DNA of 64,000 bases, from positions 682,001-746,000 of the forward strand of contig NW_026570230.1 of the NCBI RefSeq assembly GCF_019649055.1. The letters are read 5' to 3'. The notes under the pieces were generated by a model. It saw only the letters and a program-made list of their open reading frames with translations. It did not search any database and was not told the DNA's origin. Below, piece by piece: positions 13,943 through 62,567 of this stretch (positions are counted from its first letter, which is position 1; every line of letters begins with the position of its first letter). A program made the translations under genes and the position numbers. This stretch comes from Paramacrobiotus metropolitanus (taxonomy: Eukaryota > Tardigrada > Eutardigrada > Parachela > Macrobiotidae).

Positions 13943-13948
13943 CTGGTG
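13943..13948 (+). other. Target-site duplication, left copy (CTGGTG)
   Basis: The six bases before the left terminal repeat are identical to those after the right repeat (28937-28942). Six-bp duplications are the known signature of Polinton integrase. Confidence 0.95.
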
Positions 13949-14067
13949 AGAAGAAAAGAAGCGTTGAAATGGTCACCAAACAAACAACTGATGGCCAAAC
14001 AAACAATAAACATCTTGTTTACAAACATACTGCATACGACGTGCATTTAACACAAACAATTCGGCGT
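13949..14067 (+). repeat. Left terminal inverted repeat of the Polinton
   Basis: Begins AGAAGAAAAGAAGCG. The first 29 bp are identical to the inverted right end. After that the left copy has about 19 extra bases around AACAAACAACTGATGGCC. Similarity resumes at ACATCTTGTTTA and, weakly, at AATTCGGCGT (to 14067). Confidence 0.92.
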
Positions 14068-14400
14068 CACAACACCACCTTATGTTATTGATTTACGATA
14101 CATCGTCCAACCCGGTGTACCCCATTTGTTTGTTTAAATTTTCCCCACCCATTTCACCCCTTTCTTTGATTAAATTTTCCCCTCCCTTTTTCTTCCCTTT
14201 TTTGTTTTTGCCAACATAACATGCATCATTTTTTTGAGTTTATCACTTTTTTTGTTTTTTTGTTAAGCTTTAAAGTAACAAGTGAAACAGTTGTTTATCA
14301 TTTTCCAAAAGTAGCCGTAGCACTGCAATACTGCAATCGGTATTTTTGACGATTTGTGATTTTTTGGTTTTTTGTTTTTTCACGAATAATAGGTGAAACT
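14068..14400. other. Pyrimidine-rich spacer between the left terminal repeat and the IAP gene
   Basis: C/T-rich plus strand with two copies of (G)TTTAAATTTTCCCC-like sequence (14134-14150, 14168-14185) and T runs. Non-coding. It lies downstream of the IAP stop and could hold its 3' end. Confidence 0.5.
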
Positions 14401-15231
14401 TTACACTAACACAAAAAAACTCGGATTTTGAATCACCACAGTTCTGCAAACAGGACACTGTATCAATCTATCTGAACAGTTATTGCAGCAGGCCAGATGA
14501 TTACATGGGCGGAATACAACTTGGACTTCATTGTCTAAGCAGACCTTACATTGCACTTTCTCCAGGGGGTTATTTTCTCTTTTCCTAGCCGCATACGCTT
14601 GAGATACCTTGTCACAGATCTGCGCTGATTCCTTTGCTTGCTTGGTCTGAACGTCGTGGACATACTGTTCTCCTTTTTGTGCTATGACAAATGGACATAT
14701 GGGCGACGCTCTGGCGTGCTCTTCCCATGCTCCATCGGTGGGAACCCATCTTTCAAGCTCTCGACCGCAGTGAAAGCACTGGACGCAATCACCGTTCCCG
14801 TTATAAAACCAACCGGCTTGGGCCATGACCCTGGGATGCTGAGCTTTTGATTCAGGCCACTCGGCAAATGTAGAAAAACGAGCCTTGTAATCCATCATGT
14901 CTGGAAAGCGCACAGCGTAGCTATAGGTCCCCGGAATAGCAACTGGTGCTGACGCCCACACCTCCACGACGTCTTCTCCTTCCGCAGTAATGGGTTCAGG
15001 TGTTCTCTTTGACATTGGACAGTTTGGAAACAGTAATTGATGATGCCGCCTTGGGCTTCGGATTTTACCCCATCCGGACATAATACCGTCACAATATGCG
15101 CACTGAACTTCATCCCCGGTTCCACGATAAAACATTCCGGCTAAGGCCAAGTACGTCGGTGGAAGTAAACTATTGTCCCAATTGGTGTGTTTAAACGTAG
15201 CCAGACGATGGATCACATTACGCATGTCCAT
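14401..15231 (-). CDS. iap: Inhibitor-of-apoptosis protein, two BIR domains plus RING
   Basis: 276 residues, complete from ATG to stop. BIR1 lies at about residues 8-75 (CAYC, then HHQLLFPNC). BIR2 is at about 110-180 (CFHC, then EEHARASPIC). A C-terminal RING covers about 228-266 (CKVC, CNHLAC, CPVC). Both BIRs keep the Cys2-His-Cys zinc ligands. By family knowledge such proteins bind caspases or IAP antagonists through the BIRs and act as ubiquitin ligases through the RING, blocking apoptosis. This size and architecture match baculovirus-type and small insect IAPs. It is the only leftward gene of the element and faces the 152-aa ORF across a shared promoter region. No frameshift is seen, in contrast to several structural genes, which is compatible with recent capture or with selection. 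Confidence 0.95.
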   Translation of the reverse strand: MDMRNVIHRLATFKHTNWDNSLLPPTYLALAGMFYRGTGDEVQCAYCDGIMSGWGKIRSPRRHHQLLFPNCPMSKRTPEPITAEGEDVVEVWASAPVAIPGTYSYAVRFPDMMDYKARFSTFAEWPESKAQHPRVMAQAGWFYNGNGDCVQCFHCGRELERWVPTDGAWEEHARASPICPFVIAQKGEQYVHDVQTKQAKESAQICDKVSQAYAARKRENNPLEKVQCKVCLDNEVQVVFRPCNHLACCNNCSDRLIQCPVCRTVVIQNPSFFVLV

Positions 15232-15302
15232 TTTTGCTGTTTAATGACAAAAAAACTGAATCAATAAAAGCCTGTTTCTAAAACCGAAATCTAAATTTTG
15301 CT

Positions 15303-15650
15303 TGACCATCGTAGTTTATATATAATACCAATAAGGACGAAGCTTCCCAAGTCTCCGCCTTTTACACCTTCTAACAAGGCTTGCAGGGGAAAAAAGGCGG
15401 AGCAAAATTATCGATTTTTCAGCCAATCGCTACAGTCTTGTGTTGGGAAAAGTTTGACGAATGGAAACCATTGCTTTCCATAAAAAGGCGGAGTTTTGGA
15501 GGGATTTTATGCGAATCAAAATCCAACACTTTGCAGTCGCTGTAGTCGTGAGGATATAAAAGGCTAGCGGGTAAACCTTGAATTGTCAGTTGCTTTTCAG
15601 TTCCGTAAGAAAAATTGTTTGCTACTTGTTAGTCGCTTTTGCAATCAAAA
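15303..15650. promoter_or_regulatory. Divergent promoter region between IAP and the 152-aa ORF
   Basis: Rightward: TATAAAAG at 15555-15562 and an arthropod-style initiator TCAGT at 15586-15590, 65 bp before the ATG. Leftward: TATATAAA read on the minus strand at 15315-15324, about 85 bp before the IAP ATG. Between them the motif AAAAGGCGGAG occurs three times, once inverted (15353-15363) and twice direct (15391-15401, 15483-15493). A further inverted copy follows the last right-hand gene (23549-23559). The spacing suggests a shared regulatory element, but its binding factor is unknown. Confidence 0.55.
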
Positions 15651-16109
15651 ATGGATTTTGCACGCACTTTGGAGATTTTGGGAGAGCTGAACGGATACAT
15701 CATCTATAAGGTCAACAATGTGGTAAGTATGTTTTGGAACACGAAAAAGGTCAGTCTTGTTCTAGCTTTTGATCAGGAAACAGACGGTTACAAAGATCAT
15801 GAAGAGGCGTTCCGGAAAGGAGTGCGTCTGGGATGTAGTGAAATTTCGGACGTCCTGAATAAGTTGAAAGCGGGAACTATCCAAGCAGCGATGGACAAGG
15901 CAATCACAAGCAAATCTGCGGAAAAGGTCACTCTTGCCGGACCTGCTTGTATGGATGTACTTCTCAGTATCCATCCTAAATATGGGCGGATGATCCGCTT
16001 TTCACAACCCGGGCGCTCTTTACAGATTCCATACCGAGGATTTTTGGATGTAGCTCGCATTGTACAGGACAGCTTCTGGGGTCCTGAGGGAGTGTCCATG
16101 GATACGTAG
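15651..16109 (+). CDS. Unidentified 152-residue Polinton protein
   Basis: Starts MDFARTLEILGELNGYIIYK, with the ATG about 60 bp downstream of a TATA/TCAGT core promoter, and ends in TAG. No signal peptide, membrane segment or Cys/His cluster. Predicted mixed alpha/beta with a charged middle (residues about 45-95) and a beta-like C-terminal half containing IHPKYGRMIRFSQPGR and IPYRGFLDVARIV. It is placed between the IAP and the TBP-like gene, and its intact frame suggests an accessory or regulatory role. Not recognised; I considered ssDNA-binding or PC4-like coactivator folds but could not match motifs. Confidence 0.7.
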   Translation: MDFARTLEILGELNGYIIYKVNNVVSMFWNTKKVSLVLAFDQETDGYKDHEEAFRKGVRLGCSEISDVLNKLKAGTIQAAMDKAITSKSAEKVTLAGPACMDVLLSIHPKYGRMIRFSQPGRSLQIPYRGFLDVARIVQDSFWGPEGVSMDT

Positions 16110-16259
16110 GCTAACAGCATTTGACTTGTGTAACATAATGCACTATTTCGATTTACTATGTTTTTGGTCTTTTTACTAATGACAATCTACAGCTTTGTCT
16201 GGGATACTTTTAGGTAGCAAAAGAAAATTAAATAGGATAAAAAAAGGGCTAATGCCTCT

Positions 16260-16319
16260 ATTCGCGACAGACTGAGTAAGAAACGTATATAAAGAATTCG
16301 TGCTCATTCTGTCGCGATT
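16260..16319. promoter_or_regulatory. TATA box centred in a 17-bp inverted repeat, promoter of the TBP-like gene
   Basis: Left arm ATTCGCGACAGACTGAG (16260-16276). Right arm CTCATTCTGTCGCGATT (16303-16319), which matches its reverse complement at 15 of 17 positions. The 26-bp spacer has TATATAAAG (16286-16294) in its exact middle. The ATG follows 13 bp after the right arm. The symmetry suggests an operator for a dimer straddling the TATA box, or a cruciform/RNA hairpin. Since the downstream gene encodes a TATA-binding-protein homologue, autoregulation is a natural hypothesis. Confidence 0.65.
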
Positions 16320-16332
16320 AGTGTGTTCAGCC

Positions 16333-16560
16333 ATGGAGATACACAACGTTATTTTGTCCGTCAGGTTTGACAGAAGGATCGACTTGGACGCGATAACCCG
16401 TGTTTTCGGGAACGACGCTACTAAGATGAAAAACTTTAACGCCGTTAACCTTCGCTTGAATGGTAACACATTCTGTCAACTGTTTGCGAACGGCAAGGCC
16501 ATCATAAACGGCGGTAAGTCAGTTGATGAAGCGGAGCAACTGCTGCTCTTTATAAGCTGA
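16333..16560 (+). CDS. TBP-like protein, first (N-terminal) half-repeat
   Basis: 75 residues that align along the whole first structural repeat of eukaryotic TATA-binding protein. It opens with HNVILSVRFDRRIDLDAI (family: QNIVSTVNL..KLDLKTIA). Then come FNAVNLRLNGNTFCQLFANG (family: FAAVIMRI...TALIFSSG) and GKAIINGGKSVDEAEQLL (family: GKMVCTGAKSEE). The GK and G-x-KS positions are kept. The stop TGA overlaps the ATG of the second half by one base (TGATG, 16558-16562). The frame break therefore lies at the linker between the two pseudo-symmetric TBP halves. Either a true two-chain TBP (coupled reinitiation) or one TBP gene carrying a one-base frameshift. TBP nucleates transcription preinitiation complexes in the nucleus. 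Confidence 0.82.
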   Translation: MEIHNVILSVRFDRRIDLDAITRVFGNDATKMKNFNAVNLRLNGNTFCQLFANGKAIINGGKSVDEAEQLLLFIS

Positions 16561-16880
16561 TGTTACTTCTGCATGATTTTACTTTGGAGATTAAGGTACG
16601 TAGTATAGCAAATATCGTAAGCACTTACCGTCATAGTACAAAAGTCAATCTTGCCAATTTATACAATAAAAGCAGAACAATACCGGAAGTAAGTAAGGCA
16701 TTTTTTGAGCCTGAACTATTTCCAGCAGTTCAGATTAAATTTAAGTATTTAGGAGCCACAGTTAACGTGTTTCATACGGGTAACTGCGTTCTTTTAGGAT
16801 GTACATCCGTTGTACAAGTGCAGGCAGTTGCAGAAGCGATAAAAAACCTCCTGCAGTTAATTAACCAAAACTCCCAGTAA
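16560..16880 (+). CDS. TBP-like protein, second (C-terminal) half-repeat
   Basis: 106 residues matching the second TBP repeat. The most diagnostic match is FFEPELFPAVQIKF against the family motif YEPELFPGLIYRM, followed by VNVFHTGNCVLLGCTS against LLIFVSGKVVLTGAK. The N-terminal segment EIKVRSIANIVSTY corresponds to FKIQNMVGSCDV. The Lys of the second GK motif is replaced (GNC). The DNA-intercalating phenylalanines are only partly kept. It starts at the ATG inside TGATG and ends in TAA. Strong divergence from cellular TBP but clear fold-level similarity. Probably acts with the first half on the element's own TATA promoters; this is inference. Confidence 0.82.
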   Translation: MLLLHDFTLEIKVRSIANIVSTYRHSTKVNLANLYNKSRTIPEVSKAFFEPELFPAVQIKFKYLGATVNVFHTGNCVLLGCTSVVQVQAVAEAIKNLLQLINQNSQ

Positions 16881-16984
16881 TCGTAAAATTTTAGACTTTT
16901 CAACGGAAAATTTTCGGAATTTTTGCGGATTTTACAGGTGTGCTGAACTAGCGGCTTAAGGTCGAATTATCTGAGGTTTTAGAA

Positions 16985-17512
16985 ATGGAAAAAATCACTT
17001 TTGATTTTCGTTTTAAAACTCCTTGCACAATTTACATTTCAGGACCAACAATGTCTGGGAAATCAACGTTTACGTTGCAACTCTTGAAAAACGTTTCACA
17101 AAGTTTCACTCCCGTCCCTACTCGTATTGTTTACGCGTACGGTACGTGGCAAGAAACCTTTTCAACTTTTGACGAATCTATTGAACTTGTACAAGGCATT
17201 GATTCCATTATTAATGACGAAAGCTTTTTCAGAAAAGGTGATACAACGCTGCTAATTTTGGATGATTTAATGGAGGAAATAGCATCTGCTACTAAGGCAT
17301 CCGCGTTATTTACCCGTGATGTTCACCACAAAAACGTTTCTGTTGTTTTCATCTCACAAAACCTTTTCAAGCAAGGAAAGAACATGCGTGATATTTCTCT
17401 CAACTCACAATATATGGTCGTATTTAAATCTGTTCGCGACACACAGCAAATAAAAACGCTAGCGCATCAGCTGGGCATGCCACACTTGCCAGAAGCTTAT
17501 AAAAGGCTATAA
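16985..17512 (+). pseudogene. Packaging ATPase (A32/FtsK-HerA-like), C-terminus frameshifted
   Basis: The frame contains Walker A (GPTMSGKST, residues about 20-28), Walker B (LLILDDLM, about 90-97) and the sensor-like VVFISQNLF. It stops early at residue 175. The expected C-terminal region (PFGYLLINLRPGNP) lies immediately downstream in another frame (about 17520-17616), so one base is missing or extra near 17505-17515. That second frame runs on without a stop into the next small gene. In Polintons and related viruses this enzyme pumps DNA into capsids. The motor core is intact, and the frameshift could be mutation or assembly error. Confidence 0.9.
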
Positions 17513-17616
17513 AGGAACCGTTTGGATACTTATTAATTAACTTACGTCCGGGAAACCCCCGACAAGGCCCGCTTACAATCGAATATTTTTGGCTACCGAA
17601 GAATCTATGTAGAAAA

Positions 17617-17937
17617 ATGAAGCCAGAAGAAATTCTCAAGCTAATCGACGCTCTACGTTTGATGACACCCAGACAGCAGAGAGCGTTTTTTCAATTTTCT
17701 ACTACTAAACAGGTCGCTGCAATTGAAGAAGCCTGCTTGAACCTTATTAAGCAACCAAAGGGGTTAAGTAAAACACATTTAGCGAAAGCACGTGCTCATG
17801 TTGGAAAAATAAAGCGACTAGCTGATCGGAATTTAACGCGTGAAAAAAGAAAAAAGCTTTTACAGCAAAAAGGTGGATTTTTAGGAGTTCTTCTACCAGT
17901 TTTGGGAACTCTTTTAACATCGTTCCTAACAAAATGA
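17617..17937 (+). CDS. Small basic protein with C-terminal hydrophobic helix
   Basis: 106 residues. The N-terminal half is helical, the middle is very basic (LTREKRKKLLQQK), and the end is a glycine/leucine-rich membrane-seeking helix (GGFLGVLLPVLGTLLTSFL). This resembles small adenovirus pX/pVI-like virion proteins found in Polintons and adintoviruses. The upstream frame is open back into the ATPase C-terminal segment, so the true start is uncertain. The ATG at 17617 is the first after the ATPase end. Its stop overlaps the next ATG (ATGA, 17934-17937). Confidence 0.65.
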   Translation: MKPEEILKLIDALRLMTPRQQRAFFQFSTTKQVAAIEEACLNLIKQPKGLSKTHLAKARAHVGKIKRLADRNLTREKRKKLLQQKGGFLGVLLPVLGTLLTSFLTK

Positions 17938-19142
17938 AGACTTACGTGTTAGTACCGGAATCAGAATTCGTAAGTGGCAAAAATAGGTCAGGTCCAACAT
18001 CTACTTGGAAAAGGGCCCAAGAAATTAGCGATAACATGAATCAGCAGCTAATGGTGCGAGCCGCCTTGGAGAACCAACGTCCGGTTACGCGCCTGCCGGT
18101 TAGCGAGACACCAAACTATACCATAGAAAGCAATACCTTGCCATCGGAACTTTGCATAAGCCAGCAACCGTGTCAAAATACGTTGAGGCAAAGCCGCTAA
18201 TGCAAGATGCATTTTTTCAAACCGGACCTTTGCTTGAGAGCCGTGGTATCCAGGTTAGTACAGCAACAAATGACCAGCAAATTCAAGCAAATTCGTCACC
18301 CCAAATTGAGTACGTACAGTCCGAGCCGTTGGTGCATTACGTACAAGTGCCCGCGGACCCAATCGTGCACTATGTTCCTACAACCGTGCCGAGCGAACCT
18401 GTTGTCCACTATGTTCCAACCCCTTCGAAAACTTTAGTCAAACACGTATACAAATCCCCAAAAGTCCCACCAATAACTAAAAAGCGTGGTGTTCCAAAAA
18501 CTTCCCGTAACACCATGCCGAAGAAGAACCAGGCGCCAACTATAGAGTTTGCACCGACACCACCAAGCATACAAGATGCACCGCAAGAACCACCAATTGT
18601 TGAGTTTCCTCCTGACGGAGTTCTGGATTACGAACCCCATGAAAATCCAGCACTGCCGTCAAATATAAATGCAAAGGCACTTAATTATCAACCAAATAAA
18701 GTCTCACTGCGACGAAGTACACGTAAAAATTCAGCGTTACCGTATGCTGGTACGCGACTAGCCATCGAGGACCTTCCACCAGCTTACAGGTTTTAGGTAA
18801 GGCGTTGGCTCCAATTAAAACCGCGGTGCGTCGTAAGACTCGCGATAAAACTGCTCTGTTGCCGACGTCTACGCAACTGTCTGTTGAAAATGCCTTAACT
18901 GTTCCGGGGCTAACGGGCCCGTCGGCACCATGCCAATTGAAGCAGCGCATAGAAAAGCTATAACATACAACCCACAGCCTGCGAAAACAAAAAATAATGT
19001 TCAGTTAAGTAGCCAAAAGGATGAAGAACAAGAAACCAACACATATAGGCGGAGAATCGCTAGAGCCCCAACAAAGTTCTACGGGCCACCACGTAAAAAA
19101 CAGCGTACAACACAAACTGGAGGGTGGTTAAACTTTGCTTAA
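17934..19142 (+). pseudogene. Proline-rich Polinton structural-type protein, frame broken at least twice
   Basis: Three successive frames read like one protein. 17934-18200 begins MKTYVLVPESEFVSGKN. 18110-18796 has a repeated P-x-VHYV motif (EPLVHYV, DPIVHYV, EPVVHYV) and a basic Pro/Lys segment. 18797-19142 ends in a basic tail (RRRIARAPTKFYGPPRKKQR) and GGWLNFA. The shifts fall near 18130-18160 and between 18800 and 18930. Position between ATPase and integrase and the composition suggest a disordered virion protein, but the family is not established. It ends one base before the integrase ATG. Confidence 0.6.
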
Positions 19143-19143
19143 A

Positions 19144-20203
19144 ATGGTAACACTAGATGAAATTTACCTGGATGCCGGGAACCCCGGTAGCCTTGGAGGA
19201 GTTGAGCGTCTGTTTAAAGAAGCTCAAAAACATAATTATACACGTCAGCAAGTTGAACAATACTTACAGTCTAAGGACGCGTATACACAACATAAAGCAT
19301 ACCGCTCAAAGTTTAAACGAAGAAAAATTATATCAGTAAATGTAGGAGACCAACACCAAATTGACTTGATGGATATGCAAAAGTTTCGTAAAGAAAACGA
19401 TGGTTTTAATTACGTGCTGACGTGTGTTGATTGTTTCTCCAGATATGGTTGGGCGGAGCCAGTGAAGTCAAAAAAGCCGCCAGAAATTGCTGCAGCGCTC
19501 AGCACAATTTACAAACAATGCAGTCCGCCACTGCGCTGTCAAAGTGATAACGGTAAAGAATTTGTTGGAAGAGAAATGCGTGCATTTTTTAAAGAATGTA
19601 ATGTAACCTTTTTTTACTACTCGAAATGATGATGTAAAATGCGCAATGGTAGAACGACTCAACCGTACCATTAAAAACCGTATGTACGTATACATGACTG
19701 AAAAAAACACATATCGATACATAGACGTTTTGCCACAGATAATGCAAGGGTATAATAGCACTGTGCATTCTTCAACCGGTTATGCTCCAGAAAACGTTGG
19801 AGTAAACGAGAGCAACTCTATCCTTGAACGTATGCTCAGCGAACAAAAGAAATCAAAGGGGCCCGCATTTACAGCTGGCGACCATGTGCGAATTGCCAAA
19901 AGAAAAAACACGTTCGAAAAAGGTTACGAAACAAATTACACGGAAGAAATTTTTAAAGTAGTCAGAGTTTTAAAACATAAAAGCCATTTTTTGTATGCTA
20001 TCGAAGACCTAGCTGGTGAAGCAATCGACGGACACTTCTATGCTTCCGAACTGTCAAAATTTGTAATGACTGAGAGGCCATACCATCGCATTTCTAGGAT
20101 ATTAAGGGAGCGCACACACAAGGGTAAAAAACAATATCTGGTACGTTGGTATGGCTACGGCCCCGCGTATGACTCTTGGGAAAACGCAAACGAATTAAAA
20201 TGA
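19144..20203 (+). pseudogene. Polinton integrase (DDE) with C-terminal chromodomain, one frameshift
   Basis: Starts MVTLDEIYLDAGNPGSLGG. The catalytic triad is visible: D in QIDLMDM, D in QSDNGKEF and E in MVERLNRTIK, at the usual ~35-residue spacing for the last two. The C-terminus is a chromodomain (YLVRWYGYGPAYDSWENANE) with aromatic-cage-like residues. The first frame stops at 19629 and the E motif is in another frame starting before 19646. The break coincides with a run of seven T (about 19609-19615), where six T would keep the frame. Slippage, a sequencing indel or a real mutation are all possible. The stop overlaps the penton ATG (ATGA, 20200-20203). The enzyme inserts element DNA and makes 6-bp duplications; the chromodomain may direct it to modified histones. 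Confidence 0.93.
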
Positions 20204-20943
20204 GTTTTTACTTGACACTGCCATCTTCGGCGTCTCGTGATTTGTATCCAAAAAACTGTCCCGGACATTTCACAACTTTATTAGCCAGGGCAGTGGATCT
20301 GGACGGTACCTGGGAAGTTGCGTTATCAGAATTAATACTTCCTCCTATGCAGTTAAAATTTAATAGCGGCTTAGTGGTTGGTATTGCGCGAACTAATTAT
20401 CCCACTCGGGAGACTCGTTTTTTAAGTGAAAAAGCATATCCGGACGAAAACCGGTTAATACACGCTGTTAATGTGCTTTTGCGTGATGGCGCGACGGATG
20501 ATGAACCAGTTTTATATGGTCATATCGTAGTCAGTGGTAACTCCTCTGAACTAAGTATCAGACCAGACACCACCCTGACGTTCCACGGTGCAGAGTATAC
20601 CCGTGCTTTAGGTTTGCTGCAAGACTACAGTTATACGGGCAGTGATAGCCCTACTTATGTCCTCCACCCGGGGAAACATAATCGCATTGTACACGTCTAC
20701 TGTGACATCATTGAATACGGTCTAGTGGGGGATGCTATGGTTCCTTTGTTGCGCACGATATCAACGCAAGCGAGCTCGTTTGAAGATACGTGCATCCGTT
20801 TTGAAAGCCCTCACTACGTACCTATAGCCCGTCATACGTTCCAAACAGTTGAAATTAAAGTATGCGATGATTTAGGTAATGAAGTGTTTTTCCATCCAGG
20901 TACTGCAATAATCAAACTACACTTCCGACTGAAAAAACACTAA
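20200..20943 (+). CDS. Minor capsid (penton) protein, single jelly-roll
   Basis: 247 residues, intact. The start MSFYLTLPSSASRDLYPKNC followed by WEVALSELILPP is typical of Polinton penton proteins, which open with a short beta-strand and a 'P.N..F.T.L...L.L.G.WEVAL.E' signature. Length is close to other Polinton pentons. It sits between integrase and a small virion protein and precedes the major capsid gene. Predicted to form the pentamers at capsid vertices. Confidence 0.88.
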   Translation: MSFYLTLPSSASRDLYPKNCPGHFTTLLARAVDLDGTWEVALSELILPPMQLKFNSGLVVGIARTNYPTRETRFLSEKAYPDENRLIHAVNVLLRDGATDDEPVLYGHIVVSGNSSELSIRPDTTLTFHGAEYTRALGLLQDYSYTGSDSPTYVLHPGKHNRIVHVYCDIIEYGLVGDAMVPLLRTISTQASSFEDTCIRFESPHYVPIARHTFQTVEIKVCDDLGNEVFFHPGTAIIKLHFRLKKH

Positions 20944-20945
20944 AA

Positions 20946-21317
20946 ATGGTACTCCAAGAACTTAAATTCGATGAATCTCGCTACATTCAAATATTCAATC
21001 GTCAGCACGGTTACGGAATGCCCGTTTACCGCGGTGCACCAATGACGGGTGGCAGCTTTTGGGGTCGCATCATAGGATTTGCGCGGGGGTTGTTTAGTAA
21101 GGCTGCACCTCACATCAACAACATGATTGCTACCGCCCAACCACACATGAAGACATTTGCCTCGAAAGCGGTAGAATCAGCCATCGATAAAGCTGTCGAG
21201 CACGTCAGTGAAAAAATACGTCAACAAAGCGGCTCAGGCATTAAGGGACGAAAGAAAAAAATAGTCAGCATTAGTAAGAAGCAACGAGCAATTGACGCGA
21301 TAAAAGACAAACTGTAG
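20946..21317 (+). CDS. Small virion protein with glycine-rich amphipathic segment
   Basis: 123 residues. Central GGSFWGRIIGFARGLFSKAA resembles membrane-lytic or cementing proteins (adenovirus pVI-like) of Polintons and adintoviruses. The rest is helical, and the C-terminus is basic (GIKGRKKKIVSISKKQR). It starts 2 bp after the penton stop and ends 2 bp before the capsid ATG, so it belongs to the structural cassette. Confidence 0.75.
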   Translation: MVLQELKFDESRYIQIFNRQHGYGMPVYRGAPMTGGSFWGRIIGFARGLFSKAAPHINNMIATAQPHMKTFASKAVESAIDKAVEHVSEKIRQQSGSGIKGRKKKIVSISKKQRAIDAIKDKL

Positions 21318-21319
21318 CA

Positions 21320-22527
21320 ATGGCGCTTATAGAAAACGGCTCAGAGCCATCAATGTTGTTAGAGAGTCACTTATTCTACTTACCTTCAACACTAACGGAA
21401 CGATGGAATACCAGAGATTATTATTTGGGGCCCTCACAAGCCACGACCGACGAATCCAATGATTTTTCATTTACTGTAGCTCCATGTCAGTCGGAATTGG
21501 TTAGCTTAGCCGATATTCGATTTACGTGCGATCTTCACGTTACTAATGCAGCTGGAACCATACCAACGGATAGCGACTGTTTGGCCCCTATTAACAACAT
21601 TGTACACAGTCTTTTCGAGCAAGTTAGTGTTACTCTAGGCGGTCGCAGTATATCGGACAGTAGCTCGATGTATCACATTCGCGCTTATTTGGAGAGCCTT
21701 TTGGGTTATACAAAACAAGCGCAACTAACTAACTAAGTCTGGGTGGGTTCGCTATGGACACTGAAATGTCCAAAGATCCGATTTTCACAGAGAAAGTAGA
21801 CGGAAAATCATCTTTCCATAGTGAAGGTGCTGAAAAAAGGCGAAAGTGGATACAAACATTGAAGCCACTCCAGTTGTCAGGCAAGTTGCACTGCGACTTG
21901 TTTCAGCAGGATCGCCCACTTATACCAGGCGTAGAGTTAAGCATCAAACTGATTCGTAACCGAAAGAATCTAGCGTTTATTGCCGATAGCGACCTGGCAG
22001 CACCTAAAGTTGTAGCGATTCGGAATCCCCGATTGCGTATACGCAAATACGAACCAGCTCCGGATTATCTTGCCGCAATGACAAAGCAACTGGTTGGCAA
22101 TAATGCAAAATATCACGTTGAACGCGTTGCGATGCGGCAGTGTACTCTGATATCTGGTCAGCAACAACACGTGTGGGCGAATATCGTGATTGGACAGCTC
22201 CCAAAGGTAATGTTCCTAGCCCTATCACCCAGTCGTTCTTTTGCTGGGGAATACAAGTCAACTCCCTTTAATTTCGATCATTTTAACCTGTCTTATGTCC
22301 ATGCCGAGATCGACGGCCAGCTGTTTCCCACTCGAGGATACAATTTAGATTATGAAAACGGGGCCACAGCCGAGGCCTACGAAGGACTTTTAGACACACT
22401 GGAGCGTTTAGGAGAAGGTCCGGGCGAGCTACCCTTTGATCGTTCGGATTATAATGCTGGTGGCTTTTGTATTTACGGCTTTGACTTCACTCGCGGACAT
22501 ACTGGCCGCGGGGCTCTTCTCTCCTAA
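21320..22527 (+). pseudogene. Major capsid protein (double jelly-roll), one frameshift at an (AACT)3 repeat
   Basis: N-terminal frame 21320-21736 contains SHLFYLPSTLTERWNTRDYY, PINNIVHSLFEQVSVTLGG and AYLESLLGY, all typical of Polinton capsid proteins. The rest (about 21745-22527) follows in another frame with LSGKLHCDLFQQDRPLIPGV and the C-terminal FDFTRGH-like end. The break is at CAACTAACTAACTAAG (21720-21735), a tetranucleotide repeat whose copy number could have changed. Together about 400 residues. Expected to build the hexagonal capsomers. This copy cannot make full-length protein without a corrected frame. Confidence 0.92.
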
Positions 22528-22663
22528 TTAGGCAAGGCAATCTTAACATTAATTTTAAATTTGCCAAAGCTTTAAAGGAAGGAGTGGTGTGTGTTGCAAT
22601 GTTAGTCTTTGACAACGTTATCGAAATAAATAACAACAGACAGGTTTTGTTTGATTTTGCTCC
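22528..22663. other. Short spacer before the protease gene
   Basis: 136 bp, AT-rich, with no clear core promoter beyond TTAATTTTAAAT-like sequence. Confidence 0.4.
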
Positions 22664-23164
22664 ATGAACAGTATAGAAATCGACAATGCCCTTAGAAGGG
22701 ATCCAATAGTTCGTGATATTTTTGTTGGAGTCTTTCCTTGTGATAAAATTCCTGACAAAGAATTTCCGGGTGCCTACATCGTGAATACGCAACCTAGCAC
22801 TGCCTCGGGAGAGCACTGGGTCGCATTTTACTGCACTAAACCCGGTACAGTGGAAGCCTTTGACTCGTTTGGACGAAACCCAGCAGAGTATTCTCTACAC
22901 ATCAAAGACTGGATAGGTCAAGACTACATTACCATGTCAAATACGATGCGACAAAGCATAGATTCTACAGTCTGTGGTCAGTACTGTATGTTTTACGTAC
23001 TTCTACGTTGTCGAGGGTATTCCTATGAAGATGTTATGTCCGCCTTAACCAAGCATAAAGGCGTGAATGACAAATTTATTCGAAAATTTATAAACAAGTA
23101 CTTTAACCTGCACACTGCGCTACGAGACGATAATTTTATAAGGCAACTAATAAAAAATGGATAG
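22664..23164 (+). CDS. Adenovirus/Ulp1-type maturation cysteine protease
   Basis: 166 residues, intact. The catalytic order His-Asp-Cys is visible: GEHWVAFYC (His), EAFDSFGR (Asp), STVCGQYCMFYV (Gln/Cys helix). Family members cleave capsid precursors during maturation. Length and position after the capsid gene match Polinton PRO. The TAG stop overlaps the next ATG by 8 bp. Confidence 0.93.
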   Translation: MNSIEIDNALRRDPIVRDIFVGVFPCDKIPDKEFPGAYIVNTQPSTASGEHWVAFYCTKPGTVEAFDSFGRNPAEYSLHIKDWIGQDYITMSNTMRQSIDSTVCGQYCMFYVLLRCRGYSYEDVMSALTKHKGVNDKFIRKFINKYFNLHTALRDDNFIRQLIKNG

Positions 23165-23534
23165 ACCCCAAAAAATAGCAACACTTATCTTCTGGGGTCT
23201 TATGATCTCCGTACTACTAATATTCAATGTTCTTGAGATATGCAATCATGTTTCCCGAAAAACTAACCTGACTCAATCCAATGAGATCACTAAACATGTC
23301 TTGAACTTGATGATGAGTGATGCCGAATTCAGTAATGGATCGGTGTTTGGTCACTCACCGGCCCTGCCGGTGAGTGCCCAAACCTACCCGCCACCGCCGC
23401 CTCTAAACAAAGCTGTCCACATGATTCCTGACAACTTAGACTTGAACACAAGTCTGGGAGAAAAGAGCGGTGCTTGCCGCAGTATTTTAACGCCGGTAGT
23501 AGTGCAGTTGGAAATGGAAAGTGATTGGTTGTAA
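23157..23534 (+). CDS. Small membrane protein with N-terminal anchor
   Basis: 125 residues. One membrane segment (LIFWGLMISVLLIFNVLEI, about residues 10-28), then a hydrophilic part with a PPPPPL run near 80 and a Cys/Ser-containing end. The start overlaps the protease stop, so it is probably co-transcribed. A HSPALPV stretch is encoded by a short GC-rich hairpin (ACTCACCGGCC...GGTGAGT, 23353-23373). Family unknown. Confidence 0.55.
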   Translation: MDRPQKIATLIFWGLMISVLLIFNVLEICNHVSRKTNLTQSNEITKHVLNLMMSDAEFSNGSVFGHSPALPVSAQTYPPPPPLNKAVHMIPDNLDLNTSLGEKSGACRSILTPVVVQLEMESDWL

Positions 23535-23868
23535 AATGCAGCAACATGCTCCGCCTTTTCGGCTGCACATTATGTGTACGGACTTCAATGTGCTAAACGG
23601 TCGCAATATTTTAACTGAGAGAAATGTTTAGCTGCTAGTCTGGGGTACTTCAAATACTTTCAAATACCGGTACAATTCGCTTATCGAGTTGTATCCATGT
23701 AGCGTACCGTATCCATGTAAGTAAATAATATTTTAATTTTACAAGGTTTGAAAGTAGGATTTTTCTAATAAAAACGTATTCCTCGAGTGAGCGCAGATGC
23801 GAAAAAGTATATCTTTAATTCTTCATTCATGCAATGTCAATATCCTGAAGCGACCAAAGTGTAATAGA
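23535..23868. other. Non-coding, 3' end of the structural cassette
   Basis: Contains an inverted copy of the AAAAGGCGGAG motif (23549-23559) 15 bp after the last stop, then AT-rich DNA with TTTCTAATAAAAAC (23763-23776, a possible poly(A) signal). Confidence 0.45.
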
Positions 23869-24553
23869 AGGAGGGGGTAAATACACGGGATAGACAGGAA
23901 AAACGGCAATAATAAGGGATAACCATTCAGGTGTTGTGCACCATGGCCAGCCGCCAAGGGAAAGCAGTCCAGCGACACTACACAAAATTCATGCTTTGAG
24001 ACCCGAGCTGCCTTCTCCGTAGACTCCTACGTTATACTCAAACACCTACGTCTTCGAGAATTCAGAATCAAACCGTGTAATCTACATCTTAAAGAGCAAG
24101 AAATAATTAACAAGATTTTCGATACCACGCAAGCCGTGATCTATGAGAAACAAGACAAGTTAGAGCCAATTAAGTTTCCCATAGACAAAGCAATGGAGCT
24201 CCGTAAAACAAATCATCCAACTCCTATGCTTAGTCTACGAGAAACTCAAATGGTTCAGTCTTGCTTCAGTTTTAATTAGTGGCGAATTATTTCGTATCAA
24301 AAATCTTGTAAATTTTTTCTTGTTCTTTTGAGCTATCGATTGTGCGGATTAGTTCTGAAATATGCAAGACGAAGGTGGTTGTGTTTAACATAGAAGTCTA
24401 CGGAGAAACAGCTCGAGACTGGAGTCTCAACGACTGATCTGCACAGTGTCACTAGAACTGCCTTCCCTTGGTGGCTGGCCGTGTTGCACAACACGTGAAG
24501 GGTTATCCCTTATTATTGCCGTTTTTCTATCTTTCCCGTGTATTTACCTCCTT
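23869..24553. repeat. 685-bp fold-back element (long imperfect hairpin)
   Basis: Outer ends GGAGGGGGTAAATACACGGG and the inverted GGAGGTAAATACACGGG. The first ~110 bp of each arm are highly similar (shared ACGGCAATAATAAGGGATAAC and CCAAGGGAA). With more mismatches the arms keep aligning inwards (TCTCCGTAGACT, CACCTTCGTCTT, AAGATTTTTGATAC blocks) to a centre near 24200-24220, so almost the whole unit is one inverted duplication. No coding frame. Could be a fold-back/MITE nested in the Polinton or a source of long double-stranded hairpin RNA. Confidence 0.85.
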
Positions 24554-26340
24554 GTACCCGTAATTCGTTAAGGTTTTATATACGAACATTTAACAAATTT
24601 CAGTTGGCAATACATCGATATGTATTAACACGGCTGTCGTAACTAGTTACACTCCATGAACTCAAACCTAACATTTCCAGTACACACAAGTCGAGCGCGG
24701 GCGCGAGCTTACTATCGACCGAAGCGTAACGAAAGCCTATGTTCAAGAATAATGCAAAATGTGGTGTGTATATGCGTGGGTAACCACCAGCAAATGCACG
24801 TATGCACGATGGTACCTGTCACCAAATGCACAGCACGGTTGCCGTATATACTCACGCCACATATAACTCGTAGTGTCTGTACGTCGGTCACCGTCAGGAA
24901 ATGCTAACATGCACGGTGATATTTGCACCCGGATGCCCACCTATGCACGGTAACCGTATATATTGGCCGGTGGTAATCTCCCCGATATGATCAAAAGATT
25001 ACTGCGTTTGCTTTTTGGTAACAATGGCAACATAGCGCTACCGAACGTTCGTGGGGGCATTATTACCTGTCACAAGCGATGGGCTTCATCACCAGTACTG
25101 GAATCGTTAGCCGATAGCGACAGTATCAATTTACCGGTTTCCGTTAAACATTTTTGATTCAATATTCTAGTTTGGTGTTGCAGACACAGTCCAGTACCAT
25201 AATACTGTTCCTGAAACTCTTTTCTTGACACCCACTCCGGACTTCTGACATTGTACAACATAACAAAAACTAAGTAACGAAATAACTAGAAAAACCCCAA
25301 ATTGTGCAATTTCCGGCAAATATGTCCCCACAGACATAGCGAACCAAACAACCCTGTGCGATAAAAAAATCAAAACAAATTAATATCCCGGTTATTAACA
25401 AGTACCTTCTAGAAAACTGCCTAATCGGAATAGCACTCCGTTAGCATTACTAAGGGCAATTTCGTGTAAATGGTAGCCCTCCGGCCAAGTCGGTATCACC
25501 AGATTTTTGACATGATAGACCTATACGGGAACGCTGCTTTTCAGTTCAGTTTTTAGTTTTCTATAAAACGTCACCAGCGTTACTAAATCCAACCCCTCCT
25601 ACCGCATTCAGCAGATTTACTGTGCCATTGACTGCTTTGCATATTATATGCATATTGTGGCGGTGACCTTCCACAGCACTGTATGAACCGGCATAAATTT
25701 TTCCACTAGAGTTGAAGAAATTATGATTTTTGTGTACAGTGTCGAAACATGTATTCGAAACACTTACGTAATTGCGAAATTTTATGTAAATGCTTACCGG
25801 CGCCTGAGGCCGAGATTTCACTATTGTCATTGTACTAAAATTATACCAGCTGGAATGAGAGCATTAAATAATCGAAAAAGAGTGCCCACTGTAAAACGGG
25901 GTGTCATCATTTAGGATATAGTCCTGCTCCGCTTCGATCCTGCAGTGCGCGCAAAAAGCGAGTGCACTTTTCTAGTATGTAGTACACAATACTAAATACT
26001 TATTTTGTACATTTTTTATTTTTGCGGTATAGATTTACGAGCTGTACACTCTTCAGGCTGCGCAAGGCCGACCTCGCGCAAAAATTGCACAATAAGGTCA
26101 CAAAAGAACAGCAACAGATAAGGTATTGGAGAATAAAAGCACTGACCTATTTTTACCGCGTGTGTGTCACTATTCCGGAAGCAGATGGTTGGTTTGCAAA
26201 CAAAAGAGTACACTTTTGAGAAACATTTGAAGGAACTATGATGCAATACTGTTTTATTTTACCTTTACTCATATTCTACGTTTTAATTAGCACGCAGATC
26301 AGATTGTGCATATCCGGAATAAAGATCCGTACAAACCACT
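24554..26340. other. Non-coding right-hand region of the Polinton
   Basis: No frame longer than about 90 codons and no viral motif. 24790-24960 contains several GCACG(A/G)T and GTATATA words. This is where a polymerase gene might be expected in other Polintons, but no trace of one is seen. Confidence 0.5.
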
Positions 26341-26403
26341 ATTTAAATCTCACTGTCCCTAACAACCGCATTAATCATTTTATAATTTTCAAATTGTAAC
26401 AGA
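26341..26403 (+). promoter_or_regulatory. Possible core promoter of the H2A-like gene
   Basis: CTATTTAAATC at 26339-26349, about 55 bp before the ATG at 26404. No clear initiator. Confidence 0.35.
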
Positions 26404-27065
26404 ATGCCGCACGGTCGCGTAGCGAAAAAAACTAGAGGTAGAGCCCTCTCCGCTCCAGGCGAGCCGGTGCAATACTGCCGGTTGGCCGTATTCACCAGGC
26501 TATGATTCAGGGTAGCCAAACTGAAGAATCCGCATCTGTATTCATGGCCGGCGTTCTAGAGTATTTGGTTGCCGAACTCCTGTTCCTTGCTGGAAACGTG
26601 GCAGAAGTTGCACGTGCCACCGACATCAAGCCGGGTCACATTGATCAAGCCATTCGTGACGATCCGGAGGTAGGTTTTGTAAATACATATGCTACTTGCT
26701 TATTACGGTCGCATAAATATTATCATTACACCCTTATTAAAAATTATCATTAAATATCATAAATATAATATTATAAAATTTGTAATTATAATATTTAATA
26801 TTATCATACTCCCTTATTAAATATTACAAATATTATCATACACCCTTATTAAATCCGGCAATTATTATTATCTACAGGTACTGCAAGTCATGCTGGTATG
26901 CGACAACGCAAAAGCTATCTAAAATATTTATAACGCTCATATCTGTATAGACCTATTTGTTGATATTACGTATATGAAATCATAATAATACTTTCTTCTT
27001 CGCAGTTTACAACGCTCTTGTGGGGTGTGCTCCTGGGATGGTGCGATCGCCATAACCGCCGCTAA
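26404..27065 (+). pseudogene. Divergent histone H2A-like gene with one intron and one frameshift
   Basis: Exon 1 (26404-26669) begins MPHGRVAKKTRG, a basic tail. In the next frame it gives SRRAGAILPVGRIHQAM (H2A: SRAGLQFPVGRIHRLL), VFMAGVLEYLVAELLFLAGN (H2A: [20 protein letters not shown]) and IKPGHIDQAIRDDPE (H2A: I.PRHLQLAIRNDEE). The intron is 336 bp (26670-27005): donor GAG|GTAGGT, acceptor CTTTCTTCTTCGCAG. Exon 2 (27006-27065) gives FTTLLWGV, matching the H2A segment ELNKLLSGV, and stops after 20 codons, so the usual C-terminal tail is short. A one-base shift lies between about 26440 and 26455. The acidic-patch EE is changed to DDPE. A poly(A)-like AATAAAA follows at 27105. An intron excludes a simple processed retrocopy. 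Confidence 0.8.
26725..26860 (+). repeat. Tandem CACCCTTATTAAA repeats in the H2A intron
   Basis: Three copies of (C)A(C/T)(A/C)CCCTTATTAAA near 26728, 26809 and 26841, separated by AT-only sequence. Confidence 0.6.
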
Positions 27066-27129
27066 TAGATTTTGCTCGAGATGTCGTACTGTGTGCTGAT
27101 GTGCTAATAAAAACTTGTTTTCCTCATGA

Positions 27130-28160
27130 ATTTTGAAATGTTAACAATATTAAAAAACTAAACTTGCTTTAGCTAGTTGAGTGGAATCTATATTCAGTGG
27201 AATGTGAATGTTATCCCGTACTTCTGTTTTGGAATAAAATAATTTTCAGGTGTCTCCCACACCTGACAGTCTCATAGTCCATCAGGACCACATCATAATA
27301 ACTGAACGCGTTACCAAGCCTGTCACAATAAACTGCCTTTGACAGCAAAAAAATCCTGCCGACTTTACAGTAAGCAGTAATATTTTCAGTCACTGACATT
27401 AAAATTCGGGCAATACTGTATCTGCACAGTCATCAATGAGAATCTATGAGAACTTAAGTGAGTGTATCAATGAGAAGTTGTGCACAGTCTATCAATGAGA
27501 ACTTAAGTCGAAATACAGTTGGCTACCATACAACACAAACCGCATCGAAATAGTCAGTAGTAGGTACCTATTTTTACCGTATAGTGTAGAATAACGACGT
27601 AGTTGTCCGAAAATCCAGTTCAATAAGATCAAGAAAAAAACCCCTTGGGTGCCGTATCCTTAGCTTTTCCAGCATCAGTTATCAGTTTCCAGGGTGGTAC
27701 AGCAACCGTGTTCTCCCTCACAATGTAACGTACCAGGATCGAATACGCTTTATTAGTCTGTCCACTAGCCATGTAAAACCGACGTCCCACAAAATACAGT
27801 ATGAGTACATTGCTAAGAGGTGTACGTCCATTTGGACCCCGCCAAACAATCTCGTGAGGCCCCAGGGCTTAACTTTTATAATAATTATTAGAATGATAGC
27901 CAGTATGAGTATGATAGAATGGGTATGATAGCCTGCTCATTACACAAAAAATTGTAAACATACGGTGAACTACAGCAATAAACAGATTACTGTACATACA
28001 AAATGCATACACAGTACGTACACAGTATAACTATACGAGTACATACATAAATTAAACAGACAAAGCTACTGTGTAGAAAATTTATATACAGTAGTCATTA
28101 TCGTTGCACAAAGTGGTTCTCGTGCAAGCAGTTCTTAGGGCGTCAGTTTACCGATCTGAT
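27130..28160. other. Non-coding right-hand region of the Polinton with a short direct repeat
   Basis: No gene seen. GCACAGTC(T)ATCAATGAGAA...CTTAAGT occurs twice, at about 27425-27461 and 27482-27511. Confidence 0.5.
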
Positions 28161-28168
28161 CATCGCCA

Positions 28169-28338
28169 CGCCTTATCGCACCTGTGATACACTGTGGAGA
28201 GACAAAAGGGGAGTGTAAACATTCCGATTTTACAGCCACTGAGTGCCCATCTCCGCACATAGACACTATTGGGTAGAAAATACGGTGGCCAGCACCGCCT
28301 TTTCATCTCTCGCAGTGTATCACAGGTGTGATAAGGCG
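28169..28338. repeat. Inverted repeat with 41-bp arms, right subterminal region
   Basis: Arms 28169-28209 and 28298-28338 (core CGCCTTATC(G/A)CACCTGTGA). About 37 of 41 positions pair. Loop of 88 nt. Ends contain the GGCGGAG word also seen near the left-end promoter. Confidence 0.85.
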
Positions 28339-28388
28339 GAGTAAGGTAACAAAACGGGCGTCCAGCATTAACTGATTGTTATAACTAT

Positions 28389-28510
28389 GTGTATGGCGCG
28401 TCGGGAGACATTCCATGAAAAAGTAGGTCACCGGACAGCGTCATGCTGAATTAGGTCGGCATATGAATAGGCAGTCCATCTCAAGGAATGTCTCCCGGCG
28501 CGCCATGCAC
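28389..28510. repeat. Inverted repeat with 26-bp arms, right subterminal region
   Basis: Arms 28389-28414 and 28485-28510 (GTGTATGGCGCGTCGGGAGA type). 24 of 26 positions pair, 70-nt loop. Confidence 0.85.
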
Positions 28511-28828
28511 AACTTCACTCGAAATCCAACAGCCGACGTCTGGATACTTAGTGTGAACAACACCACTGCACTAACATCATTATAATTTACTTAAACTAAA
28601 CTACTTTATGGTAACATTAATCATAGTTAAATACAGAATACTATTGCGATAGTTATTATTATTGTTTAAGAATTTAAGTTAATAACGTAATTTACTGTTA
28701 GGATTATGATTATAACCATATAGCTAACTAAATAAAAACATAAGTTTGTTGTTGTAATGGGTTTAACGTTGTTGTAATTATAGCCGTAATTATTGTTGTG
28801 TTCCAGATGTTATTGTTTATTGTAGCTA

Positions 28829-28936
28829 CGCCGAATTATTGATGTTTAGAGTGTTTGTAAATAAATAATATGTCTGTTATTCATAAACAAGATGTTAATG
28901 TTTGTCCGGTGACCATTTCAACGCTTCTTTTCTTCT
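28829..28936 (-). repeat. Right terminal inverted repeat of the Polinton
   Basis: Reverse complement of the left end: 29 identical terminal bp, then an imperfect match to about 108 bp. Confidence 0.92.
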
Positions 28937-53937: not shown

Positions 53938-54083
53938 TCGGTATTTGGATGCTGATATTGTGGGCCACCGAGCTGACGCTTGGTGGACTGAGCGACAACC
54001 AGGTTGGACTCCGTCTCGTTTCGCTTCCCGGGTGATGTGCGCAGTTGGCGTTGCTCAGGCTGTCTACGGCTTTGGCGTCCACT

Positions 54084-62319: not shown

Positions 62320-62352
62320 CGTTGAATGGGGCGCTGTCACGAGACGAATCAC

Positions 62353-62567
62353 GCGGTGTTAGGCTCCTACCTACTATGTTAGTTCGAAGTACGGCTAGCT
62401 ACTTATAAGCTACCTTGTCAGATAAGGTTACGGATATTGGACCAGTTTAGCTACTTCTAAGCTACTGGTCTTTTAAGGTTAGGTTAGTTAAATTAAGGTT
62501 CGTTAGTTTCGGTAGCAGCTCACGGTTAGTTCGACTAATTCTAAGTCTACCGTGTCAAATACGGATA
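62353..62567. other. Low-GC spacer between two ORFs of the retroelement block
   Basis: About 215 bp with repeated AGCTACTTATAAGCTAC / AGCTACTTCTAAGCTAC words and GGTTAGGTTAGTTA. Could act as a promoter for the giant ORF. Confidence 0.4.

What the first reader, a model, noticed from the sequence alone, without database searches (positions are those of the whole stretch)
16333..16880. A Polinton that encodes a TATA-binding-protein homologue, split exactly between its two halves
Seen: ORF 16333-16560 matches TBP repeat 1 (HNVILSVRFDRRIDLDAI; GKAIINGGKS) and ORF 16560-16880 matches TBP repeat 2 (FEPELFPAV, VNVFHTGNCVLLG). They overlap by one base as TGATG. Known: TBP is a pseudo-dimer of two such repeats; I know of no Polinton TBP. 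Inference: the element carries its own promoter-recognition factor, either as a two-chain TBP resembling the supposed ancestral dimer, or as one gene with a one-base shift at the linker.
Basis: partly seen in the sequence, partly recalled or inferred. Interest (0 to 1): 0.92.

Follow-up and report, generated by a model that had tools for sequence, protein, structure and literature searches.

The report
Polinton with its own TATA-binding protein
Virus-like elements in a tardigrade genome nearly all carry their own version of the protein that tells the cell where genes start, with a rebuilt DNA-reading surface, and they carry an odd, conserved start-like signal in front of their capsid gene; the reported split of the gene is probably a sequencing error or a recent lesion.

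Summary
The TBP homology is real. Each half hits Pfam TBP (1.4e-9, 7.4e-13), and the unbroken protein of a sister copy folds as TBP (pLDDT 95.8; TM up to 0.86). The element is a Polinton: window 13949-28936, AG-starting inverted repeats, 6-bp target duplication, host the tardigrade Paramacrobiotus metropolitanus. The split is not a design: of the 8 closest copies 6 are split and 2 fused, and copies differ largely by homopolymer indels in a nanopore-based genome.

The larger finding: TBP is a core gene here. It lies near at least 133 of 143 capsid-gene loci, in three gene orders, under purifying selection. About 60 environmental proteins join the clade; host TBP does not. DNA-contact residues are rebuilt and near-invariant, a TFIIB-contact acidic residue is kept, and no TFIIB gene was found with the elements. 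A TATA-like motif, (T/C)ATTAARG, is conserved at silent sites before the capsid gene in both clades and was found in 19 of 20 further loci. I infer a viral TBP driving late genes through host Pol II. My searches found no Polinton TBP in print.

The parts
13949..28936 (.). Polinton element, 14,988 bp, without a listed DNA polymerase match
   Evidence: 39-nt terminal inverted repeats (37/39) beginning AG; exact 6-bp duplication CTGGTG on both sides; in eight other copies the likeness begins within 13945-13949
14401..15231 (-). inhibitor-of-apoptosis gene (BIR + RING) inside the element
   Evidence: Pfam BIR 1.7e-35, RING 2.5e-12; the DNA is shared by other copies
15639..16109 (+). unknown ORF upstream of TBP
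   Evidence: 47.5% identical ORF at the same place in the C7 family
16286..16294 (+). canonical TATA box TATATAAAG 47 nt before the TBP start codon
   Evidence: at -46/-47 in 8 of 12 window-clade loci (some of them close copies); some TATA in 11 of 12, 1.2 expected
16333..16560 (+). TBP lobe 1 (frame broken before the linker)
   Evidence: PF00352 1.4e-9
16560..16880 (+). TBP lobe 2, starting at a Met that is internal in fused copies
   Evidence: PF00352 7.4e-13; comparison with L007
16985..17512 (+). A32/FtsK-like packaging ATPase, truncated here
   Evidence: PF04665 1.5e-4 here, just below its cut-off, 9.5e-9 in family C39; longer frames in sister copies
17617..17937 (+). small conserved ORF o17617
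   Evidence: found in the same order in 5 other families
19135..20203 (+). RVE integrase with chromodomain, two frames here
   Evidence: PF00665 3.4e-12, PF00385 4.7e-9; one frame in C298, C7 and C39 families
20100..20107 (+). TATTAAGG motif 100 nt before the penton start codon
   Evidence: top silent-site conservation peak of the integrase 3' end, reached in 0 of 1000 codon shuffles; the motif itself in 5 of 8 families
20200..20943 (+). penton-like (minor capsid) ORF
   Evidence: gene order and recall; homologous ORF in 5 other families; no Pfam hit
20946..21317 (+). small ORF o20946 carrying the motif before the capsid gene
21239..21246 (+). CATTAAGG motif 81 nt before the capsid start codon
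   Evidence: ATTAAGG in 8 of 8 window-clade families; codon shuffles 7 of 1000
21320..22527 (+). major-capsid-like ORF, broken into two frames here
   Evidence: gene order and recall; intact 453-456 aa in sister copies; fold not tested
22664..23164 (+). adenain-like protease
   Evidence: weak PF00770 0.0037, below cut-off; position
23872..24552 (.). self-complementary insertion inside the element
   Evidence: self-BLAST palindrome

Best explanation
The two ORFs are one TATA-binding-protein gene of a Polinton (Maverick/adintovirus-like element), broken in this copy. In this tardigrade's Polintons TBP is an old core gene (shown). In the window clade the TBP gene is switched on through an ordinary TATA box, presumably by host TBP (TATA box shown, its use inferred). 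The viral TBP keeps the DNA-kinking aromatics and an acidic TFIIB contact, but its base-reading residues are replaced by a fixed new set (shown). It would therefore read a different core element, most likely the (T/C)ATTAARG box conserved before the capsid gene, and hand that promoter to host TFIIB and Pol II (inferred), partly freed from TBP regulators that bind the N-lobe basic patch (inferred). This would be an early-to-late switch built from one viral general transcription factor.
For: Homology and fold. Element anatomy. Core status: 126 of 143 capsid loci and 130 of 148 ATPase loci have a TBP match within 14 kb (3.3% expected for a random point), 65 of 79 listed PolB loci within 16 kb; of 10 apparent capsid-locus exceptions tested, out of 17, 7 had one at the predicted place. 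Selection: dN/dS 0.10-0.26 in the 7 of 13 pairs where dS could be computed. One side of a 100/98 branch apart from cellular TBPs. Rebuilt contacts: Q114 in 100 of 103, N124 in 101 of 103, L215 in 97 of 103 viral rows, against 1, 0 and 1 of 23 cellular rows. Position 188 acidic in 101 of 103. No TFIIB match at the elements. Motif: codon-shuffle maxima reached in 0, 7 and 2 of 1000; 19 of 20 further loci against 0.55 expected, 0 antisense; 17 gene-strand against 0 antisense matches.
Against: No binding or expression data; the link between TBP and motif is correlational. The motif was found only before the capsid gene (both clades) and the penton gene (5 of 8 window-clade families); silent-site scans of ATPase, o17617, o18152, capsid and protease genes in 3-4 families did not show it. 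Before the capsid gene the strict form is in 6 of 8 second-clade families (a variant in C31, none in C44), also not in C7b nor in held-out L096. E186 together with E188 is kept in only 15 of 31 tardigrade and 28 of 60 environmental rows outside the window clade. Several viral residues are changes listed as abolishing DNA binding of yeast TBP (PMC2265533), so loss of DNA binding is a live alternative. Held-out loci are relatives of the training families.
Confidence: 0.6

Rival explanations
1. A genuine two-chain TBP: lobes made as separate polypeptides by stop-restart at TGATG (or by frameshifting).
For: Six near-identical copies share the break; two of them (C41, C158) keep long capsid and ATPase frames; lobe 2 has a Met at its start.
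Against: C31 (99%) and C103 (92%) are fused; 47 of 56 fetched non-host loci have one frame over both lobes. Lesion in a single-base run; 30 indel events against 26 substitution columns among seven copies; published genome nanopore/Canu. In the window copy ATPase, integrase and capsid frames are broken too.
Confidence: 0.03
2. The viral TBP is a decoy: it has lost DNA binding and works by tying up TFIIB or other host factors to weaken host transcription.
For: F116Y, T124N, V203T and L205V appear among yeast changes listed as abolishing DNA binding (PMC2265533, passages); an acidic TFIIB contact is kept.
Against: The replaced residues are near-invariant rather than drifting; the kinking aromatics and N69/N159 are kept with few exceptions; a TATA-like motif is conserved before the capsid gene.
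Confidence: 0.15
3. The viral TBP simply adds to host TBP at ordinary TATA boxes, including its own gene's.
For: Canonical TATA before TBP in the window clade.
Against: Rebuilt base contacts; in the second clade 2 of 32 loci have a TATA box before TBP, no more than chance (0.98 expected).
Confidence: 0.1
4. The (T/C)ATTAARG motif is a site for something else (an activator, RNA processing, packaging), unrelated to the TBP.
For: Distance to the capsid start codon varies from about 75 to 160 nt and more; other virion genes did not show it.
Against: TATA-like sequence, gene-strand only in the stretches counted, and present together with a TBP whose base contacts are changed.
Confidence: 0.3
5. Recent capture or hitch-hiking of a host TBP gene, or assembly contamination.
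For: None found beyond TBP homology.
Against: Host TBP falls with cellular TBPs; about 200 merged TBP loci, in three gene orders; environmental relatives.
Confidence: 0.02

Closest known systems
Cellular TBP (PF00352; yeast 1ytb, human 1cdw)
   Same: Two-lobe fold end to end, kinking aromatics, N69/N159 with few exceptions, acidic residue 188
   Different: 21-26% identity to eukaryotic and archaeal TBP chains; changed base contacts L114Q, V122I/T, T124N, V203T, T215L and others; N-lobe basic patch largely lost in the window clade
TBPs of large DNA viruses (mirusviruses; viral set of PMC7221094)
   Same: Virus-encoded two-lobe TBP
   Different: Those genomes almost always also encode a TFIIB-like protein and vary at the TFIIB contacts (PMC7221094, passages and one section); mirusvirus TBP in 59% of genomes (PMC10132985, passages). 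Here no TFIIB is found and E186+E188 are kept in 12 of 12 window-clade rows. None of these TBPs was aligned here
Beta/gammaherpesvirus late TBP mimics (EBV BcRF1, KSHV ORF24) and their TATT box (recalled, no call)
   Same: Viral TBP-like factor paired with a TATT-type box before late genes, using host Pol II
   Different: No sequence test made; herpesvirus factors are large and need several viral partners (recalled)
Poxvirus VITF-3 (PMC12917281, abstract seen)
   Same: Viral TBP-like promoter factor
   Different: Heterodimeric TBP/TFIIB pair working with a viral RNA polymerase; no TFIIB was found here, RNA polymerase was not searched for
Known Polintons/Mavericks/adintoviruses
   Same: TIRs, 6-bp duplication, PolB in sister copies, RVE integrase, A32-like ATPase, protease, capsid-like genes
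   Different: TBP. Listings showed no Polinton paper reporting one; only PMC10132985 and PMC10675990 were opened for this, as passages

Membership tests
TBP (PF00352) | Significant profile match in both lobes | tested here: met
   1.4e-9 and 7.4e-13; 38.1 and 48.6 bits against a cut-off of 22.9
TBP (PF00352) | TBP fold, full length | tested here: met
   pLDDT 95.8; TM 0.82-0.86 and rmsd about 2 A to eukaryotic TBPs; the alignment used included one host TBP row
TBP (PF00352) | Four DNA-kinking aromatics | tested here: met
   F or Y at 99 and 116 and F at 207 in all 103 viral rows; F190 in 101 of 103
TBP (PF00352) | Canonical TATA base contacts | tested here: not met
   Positions 114, 122, 124, 203, 205, 213, 215 systematically changed, except V213 kept in the window clade; that they contact bases is mostly recalled
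TBP (PF00352) | Binds DNA and TFIIB | not testable with these tools
   Needs biochemistry
Polinton/Maverick | TIRs beginning AG and 6-bp target duplication | tested here: met
   13949 and 28936, CTGGTG; that these are hallmarks is recalled
Polinton/Maverick | RVE integrase and A32-type ATPase | tested here: met
   PF00665 3.4e-12; PF04665 1.5e-4 here, just below the curated cut-off, 9.5e-9 and above it in C39
Polinton/Maverick | Protein-primed PolB | tested here: inconclusive
   None listed in the window copy; PF03175 inside sister copies C56 and C54 (list truncated)
Polinton/Maverick | Double jelly-roll capsid protein | not tested
   Named from gene order and recall; no Pfam or significant PDB sequence match; fold job could not be placed
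Two-chain (split) TBP | Split conserved in related copies | tested here: not met
   Fused in C31, C103 and 47 of 56 fetched non-host loci
Orthogonal viral TBP-TFIIB system | Viral TFIIB alongside TBP | tested here: not met
   PF00382: 6 matches at 3 loci (C45, C100, C28), none at a listed Polinton locus; a very divergent TFIIB could be missed

The most novel reading that the evidence does not exclude
A whole lineage of small animal-associated DNA viruses evolved its own core-promoter code: a TBP with a rewritten DNA-reading face paired with a (T/C)ATTAARG box at the capsid gene, plugged into host TFIIB and Pol II without a viral TFIIB, as an independent counterpart of the herpesvirus TATT-box system.
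Probability: 0.45. Interest if true: 0.92.

Novelty: new variant of a known kind. Interest (0 to 1): 0.8.

Why it matters
A general transcription factor as a core gene of 15-20 kb virus-like elements is unexpected, since such elements were thought to rely on host promoter recognition (my understanding, not from a call). It offers a natural TBP with changed base contacts next to a candidate cognate motif, so the question of how TBP specificity can change in evolution becomes directly testable. It also suggests a simple early-to-late switch for Polintons and gives a marker for finding related viruses in environmental data, where some of their TBPs are now labelled as ordinary TFIID subunits.

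Tried and rejected
Split as a real two-chain design: rejected. Element bounded at 15392-23559 by a 40-nt inverted pair: rejected because copies are alike across 15392. TGTAAA as the viral TBP's site, suggested by recalled yeast altered-specificity changes: 0 of 12 and 0 of 32 TBP upstreams, 5 of 97 upstream windows against 1 of 94 controls, not pursued. A first look at TATTAAGG before the capsid gene seemed to show it lost in divergent families; that view was cut at 130 nt, and some start codons were wrongly assigned; searches corrected it. The second-clade integrase scan had only 8 windows and said nothing; the full-integrase and window-clade penton scans gave no result; the second-clade penton scan and scans of five other genes in 3-4 families showed no such motif. 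IMG/VR scans with TBP and capsid queries confirmed no relative. Capsid sequence against PDB (best E 0.86, unrelated) and Pfam: nothing. The tree holds no TBPL1/TRF, archaeal, mirusvirus or giant-virus TBPs, so a viral source of the gene is not excluded; P0007 is a very long branch. Of the capsid-locus exceptions tested, 3 of 10 (C71, C7, C1) had no TBP at the predicted place, and 7 further ones, 18 ATPase loci and 14 PolB loci without a listed TBP were not tested. Papers with both Polinton and TBP or TFIIB words that I did not open: PMC7786948, PMC11464507 and PMC12085832.

In one search the capsid start of the second clade was anchored inexactly (the query did not begin at the Met), so distances printed there for that clade are too short; one search gives 135-150 nt before the preceding stop codon for six of the seven families with the motif or its variant. 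In one of the 19 positive loci (L101) the match lies at another place than in its relatives. Loci dropped from the residue table: L001, L002, L006, L016, L042, L052 (split, broken or partial), identical duplicates, and the host copies from the viral groups; P0007 was counted apart. From I left out second-lobe rows of loci already listed when merging. The grouping of rows as environmental or cellular is mine, by score and source.

Full report
Observation. The two ORFs stand at the stated coordinates and overlap as TGATG. Each is a TBP lobe by Pfam (1.4e-9 and 7.4e-13). The own genome (170 Mb, 533 contigs) has 101 matches to lobe 1 and 150 scored matches to the Pfam family out of 493 first-look candidates, one locus of which (C4:406165-406662) is the host's own TBP by its sequence. 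An NCBI-named protein whose contig has the length of C41 (1,163,329) gives the organism as the tardigrade Paramacrobiotus metropolitanus.

The element. In eight other copies the likeness to the window begins within 13945-13949. A 39-nt inverted repeat beginning AG closes at 28936, and CTGGTG flanks both ends. Inside are an IAP gene, the TBP frames, an A32-like ATPase, an RVE integrase with chromodomain, penton- and capsid-like ORFs and a weak adenain match. Two sister copies appear to span about 19.8 kb, judging by opposite-strand repeat ends at C56 and C54, and hold PolB matches; the window copy has no listed PolB match. The same block (ATPase, small ORF, integrase, penton, small ORF, capsid, protease) recurs in four further families read at 7.5-10 kb, and its first part in a fifth (C5). 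Capsid and penton names rest on gene order and recall.

The split. Of the eight closest copies, six share the break and two are fused; C31 is 99% identical to the window copy in lobe 1. Among the seven closest copies there are 30 indel events of one or two columns, 28 of them in single-base runs of three or more, against 26 variable substitution columns. The current published genome was assembled with Canu, and nanopore reads underlie it (passages of PMC11191345). An unresolved sequencing error is the simplest reading; a recent lesion shared by six copies is the next. In either case the fused gene is ancestral, because the outgroup copy C103 and other families are fused: 47 of 56 fetched non-host loci have one frame over both lobes.

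A core gene. Merged hit lists give 143 capsid loci, of which 126 have a TBP match within 14 kb, and 148 ATPase loci, of which 130 do; a random point would in 3.3%. Of 79 listed PolB loci 65 have one within 16 kb. The lists were truncated, so I tested ten of the 17 apparent capsid exceptions at the position predicted from their families: seven held TBP sequence, several of them in pieces, and three did not. That gives at least 133 of 143. TBP occupies three places: just upstream of the ATPase on the same strand (77), 6-9.5 kb downstream on the same strand (35) or divergent from it (15), of 148; 18 had none and 3 another arrangement. In the other direction, 37 of 201 merged TBP loci, host TBP included, had neither gene in the truncated lists. 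Pairwise dN/dS is 0.10-0.26 in the 7 of 13 pairs not saturated at silent sites.

Relatives. A profile of the second tardigrade clade found 1468 proteins, of which 120 were listed; the best, nearly all without an organism name, score 150-234 bits, and cellular TBPs begin at about 140 bits (a plant protein with two TBP copies scores 189). A search with the window clade found further unnamed environmental members and another P. metropolitanus protein among 32 hits. In a tree of 64 rows chosen from those held, the 46 viral-type rows and the 18 cellular rows, host TBP included, lie on opposite sides of a branch with support 100/98; tardigrade and environmental rows are interleaved in the second clade. 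This fits one old acquisition and several virus lineages. The genomic context of the environmental proteins was not seen.

DNA-reading surface. In yeast numbering, the viral rows (12 window clade including two environmental, 31 other tardigrade, 60 environmental) keep N69, N159 and the four kinking aromatics with few exceptions, but carry Q114, I or T122, N124, T203 (or S/R), V, M or a polar residue at 205, N213 (V in the window clade) and L215, most of them near-invariant. That these positions face the minor groove is recalled knowledge, supported in part by PMC2265533, whose table lists F116Y, T124N, V203T and L205V among yeast changes that abolish DNA binding (passages). PMC10005294 reports that plant TBPs with three substitutions in the second repeat accept TGTAAA and other variants (passages). 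Fixed new residues argue for a new ligand rather than for decay.

Partners. PMC7221094 found that almost all viruses with a TBP-like protein also have a TFIIB-like one, poxviruses excepted, and that viral TBPs vary at the two TFIIB-contacting Glu (passages). Here TFIIB matches occur at only three genomic loci, none at a listed Polinton. Both Glu are kept in 12 of 12 window-clade rows, 15 of 31 and 28 of 60 in the others; position 188 stays acidic in 101 of 103. The basic N-lobe patch is lost in the window clade and diluted in the others. I infer use of host TFIIB.

Promoters. The window-clade TBP gene has TATATAAAG at -46/-47 in 8 of 12 loci (11 of 12 have some TATA, 1.2 expected, reached in 0 of 300 shuffles; some loci are close copies); in the second clade 2 of 32, as expected by chance. 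A k-mer comparison upstream of structural genes, made after I had noticed the motif by eye, put TATTAAG on top among 7-mers (21 of 97 windows, 0 of 94 controls; windows are related). Silent-site conservation peaked at ATA-TTA-AGG in the integrase (before penton) and at ATT-AAG in o20946 (before capsid), two different reading frames, across eight window-clade families; in the second clade the o20946 peak was TATTAAAG, in strict form in 6 of 8 families. Codon shuffles reached the observed maxima in 0, 7 and 2 of 1000. In 20 further loci, relatives of those families, the motif lay upstream of the capsid gene in 19, never antisense and never in the tested downstream stretch, 0.55 expected. The window element has exactly two matches, at 20100 and 21239, both on the gene strand; with the five longer loci the count is 17 gene-strand to 0 antisense. 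Against it: scans of other genes did not show the motif, three of eight window-clade families lack it before penton, and C44, C7b and L096 lack it before the capsid gene.

Structure. The intact protein of copy C31 gives pLDDT 95.8 and two repeats of the strand-helix-strands-helix lobe; by their titles Foldseek's top 44 matches are TBP or TBP-fusion chains.

Literature. Searches for Polinton/Maverick/adintovirus with TBP terms and for tardigrades with these elements listed no report of a Polinton TBP; most were seen as listings only, preprints in bioRxiv and many subscription papers are not held. The herpesvirus TATT-box comparison is recalled.

Verdict. TBP homology and Polinton context: near certain. 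Split: not a design. Core gene with rebuilt DNA contacts: shown. Viral TBP reading a TATT-type box before the capsid gene with host TFIIB: best explanation, about 0.6, untested.

Noticed in passing
window 14401-15231: An inhibitor-of-apoptosis gene (BIR plus RING) sits inside the element; IAP-like ORFs also occur in families C7 (L061) and C39 (L062).
   Followed up: partly
window 52000-64000: GC rises to 0.53-0.58 with strong negative AT skew and long minus-strand ORFs; none of the six tested hits Pfam at 0.01.
   Followed up: no
window 23872-24552: A roughly 680-bp self-complementary insertion, MITE-like, inside the element.
   Followed up: no
L001-L007: Near-identical copies differ by about as many homopolymer indels as substitutions, a warning for any frame call in this assembly.
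   Followed up: yes
P0005, P0072, P0132: Public gene models of P. metropolitanus call Polinton TBPs TATA-box-binding protein-like, or fuse a TBP fragment with the ATPase (LOC129590691).
   Followed up: no
P0008-P0068: Some environmental relatives are labelled as TFIID subunits by the source; some lie on contigs of 12-28 kb that could be whole viral genomes.
   Followed up: no
P0134: A TBP-like protein of 'Eukaryota sp. GEM-RC1' scores 109 bits against the window-clade profile at 22% identity; not placed in the tree.
   Followed up: no
L082, L083, L056, L057: The family with Met at position 205 of TBP also lacks the motif before its capsid gene, a possible co-change (one lineage).
   Followed up: no
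L025: In one second-clade copy the TBP frame runs on from an upstream open frame (403 aa in all), so its promoter may lie inside another gene.
   Followed up: no
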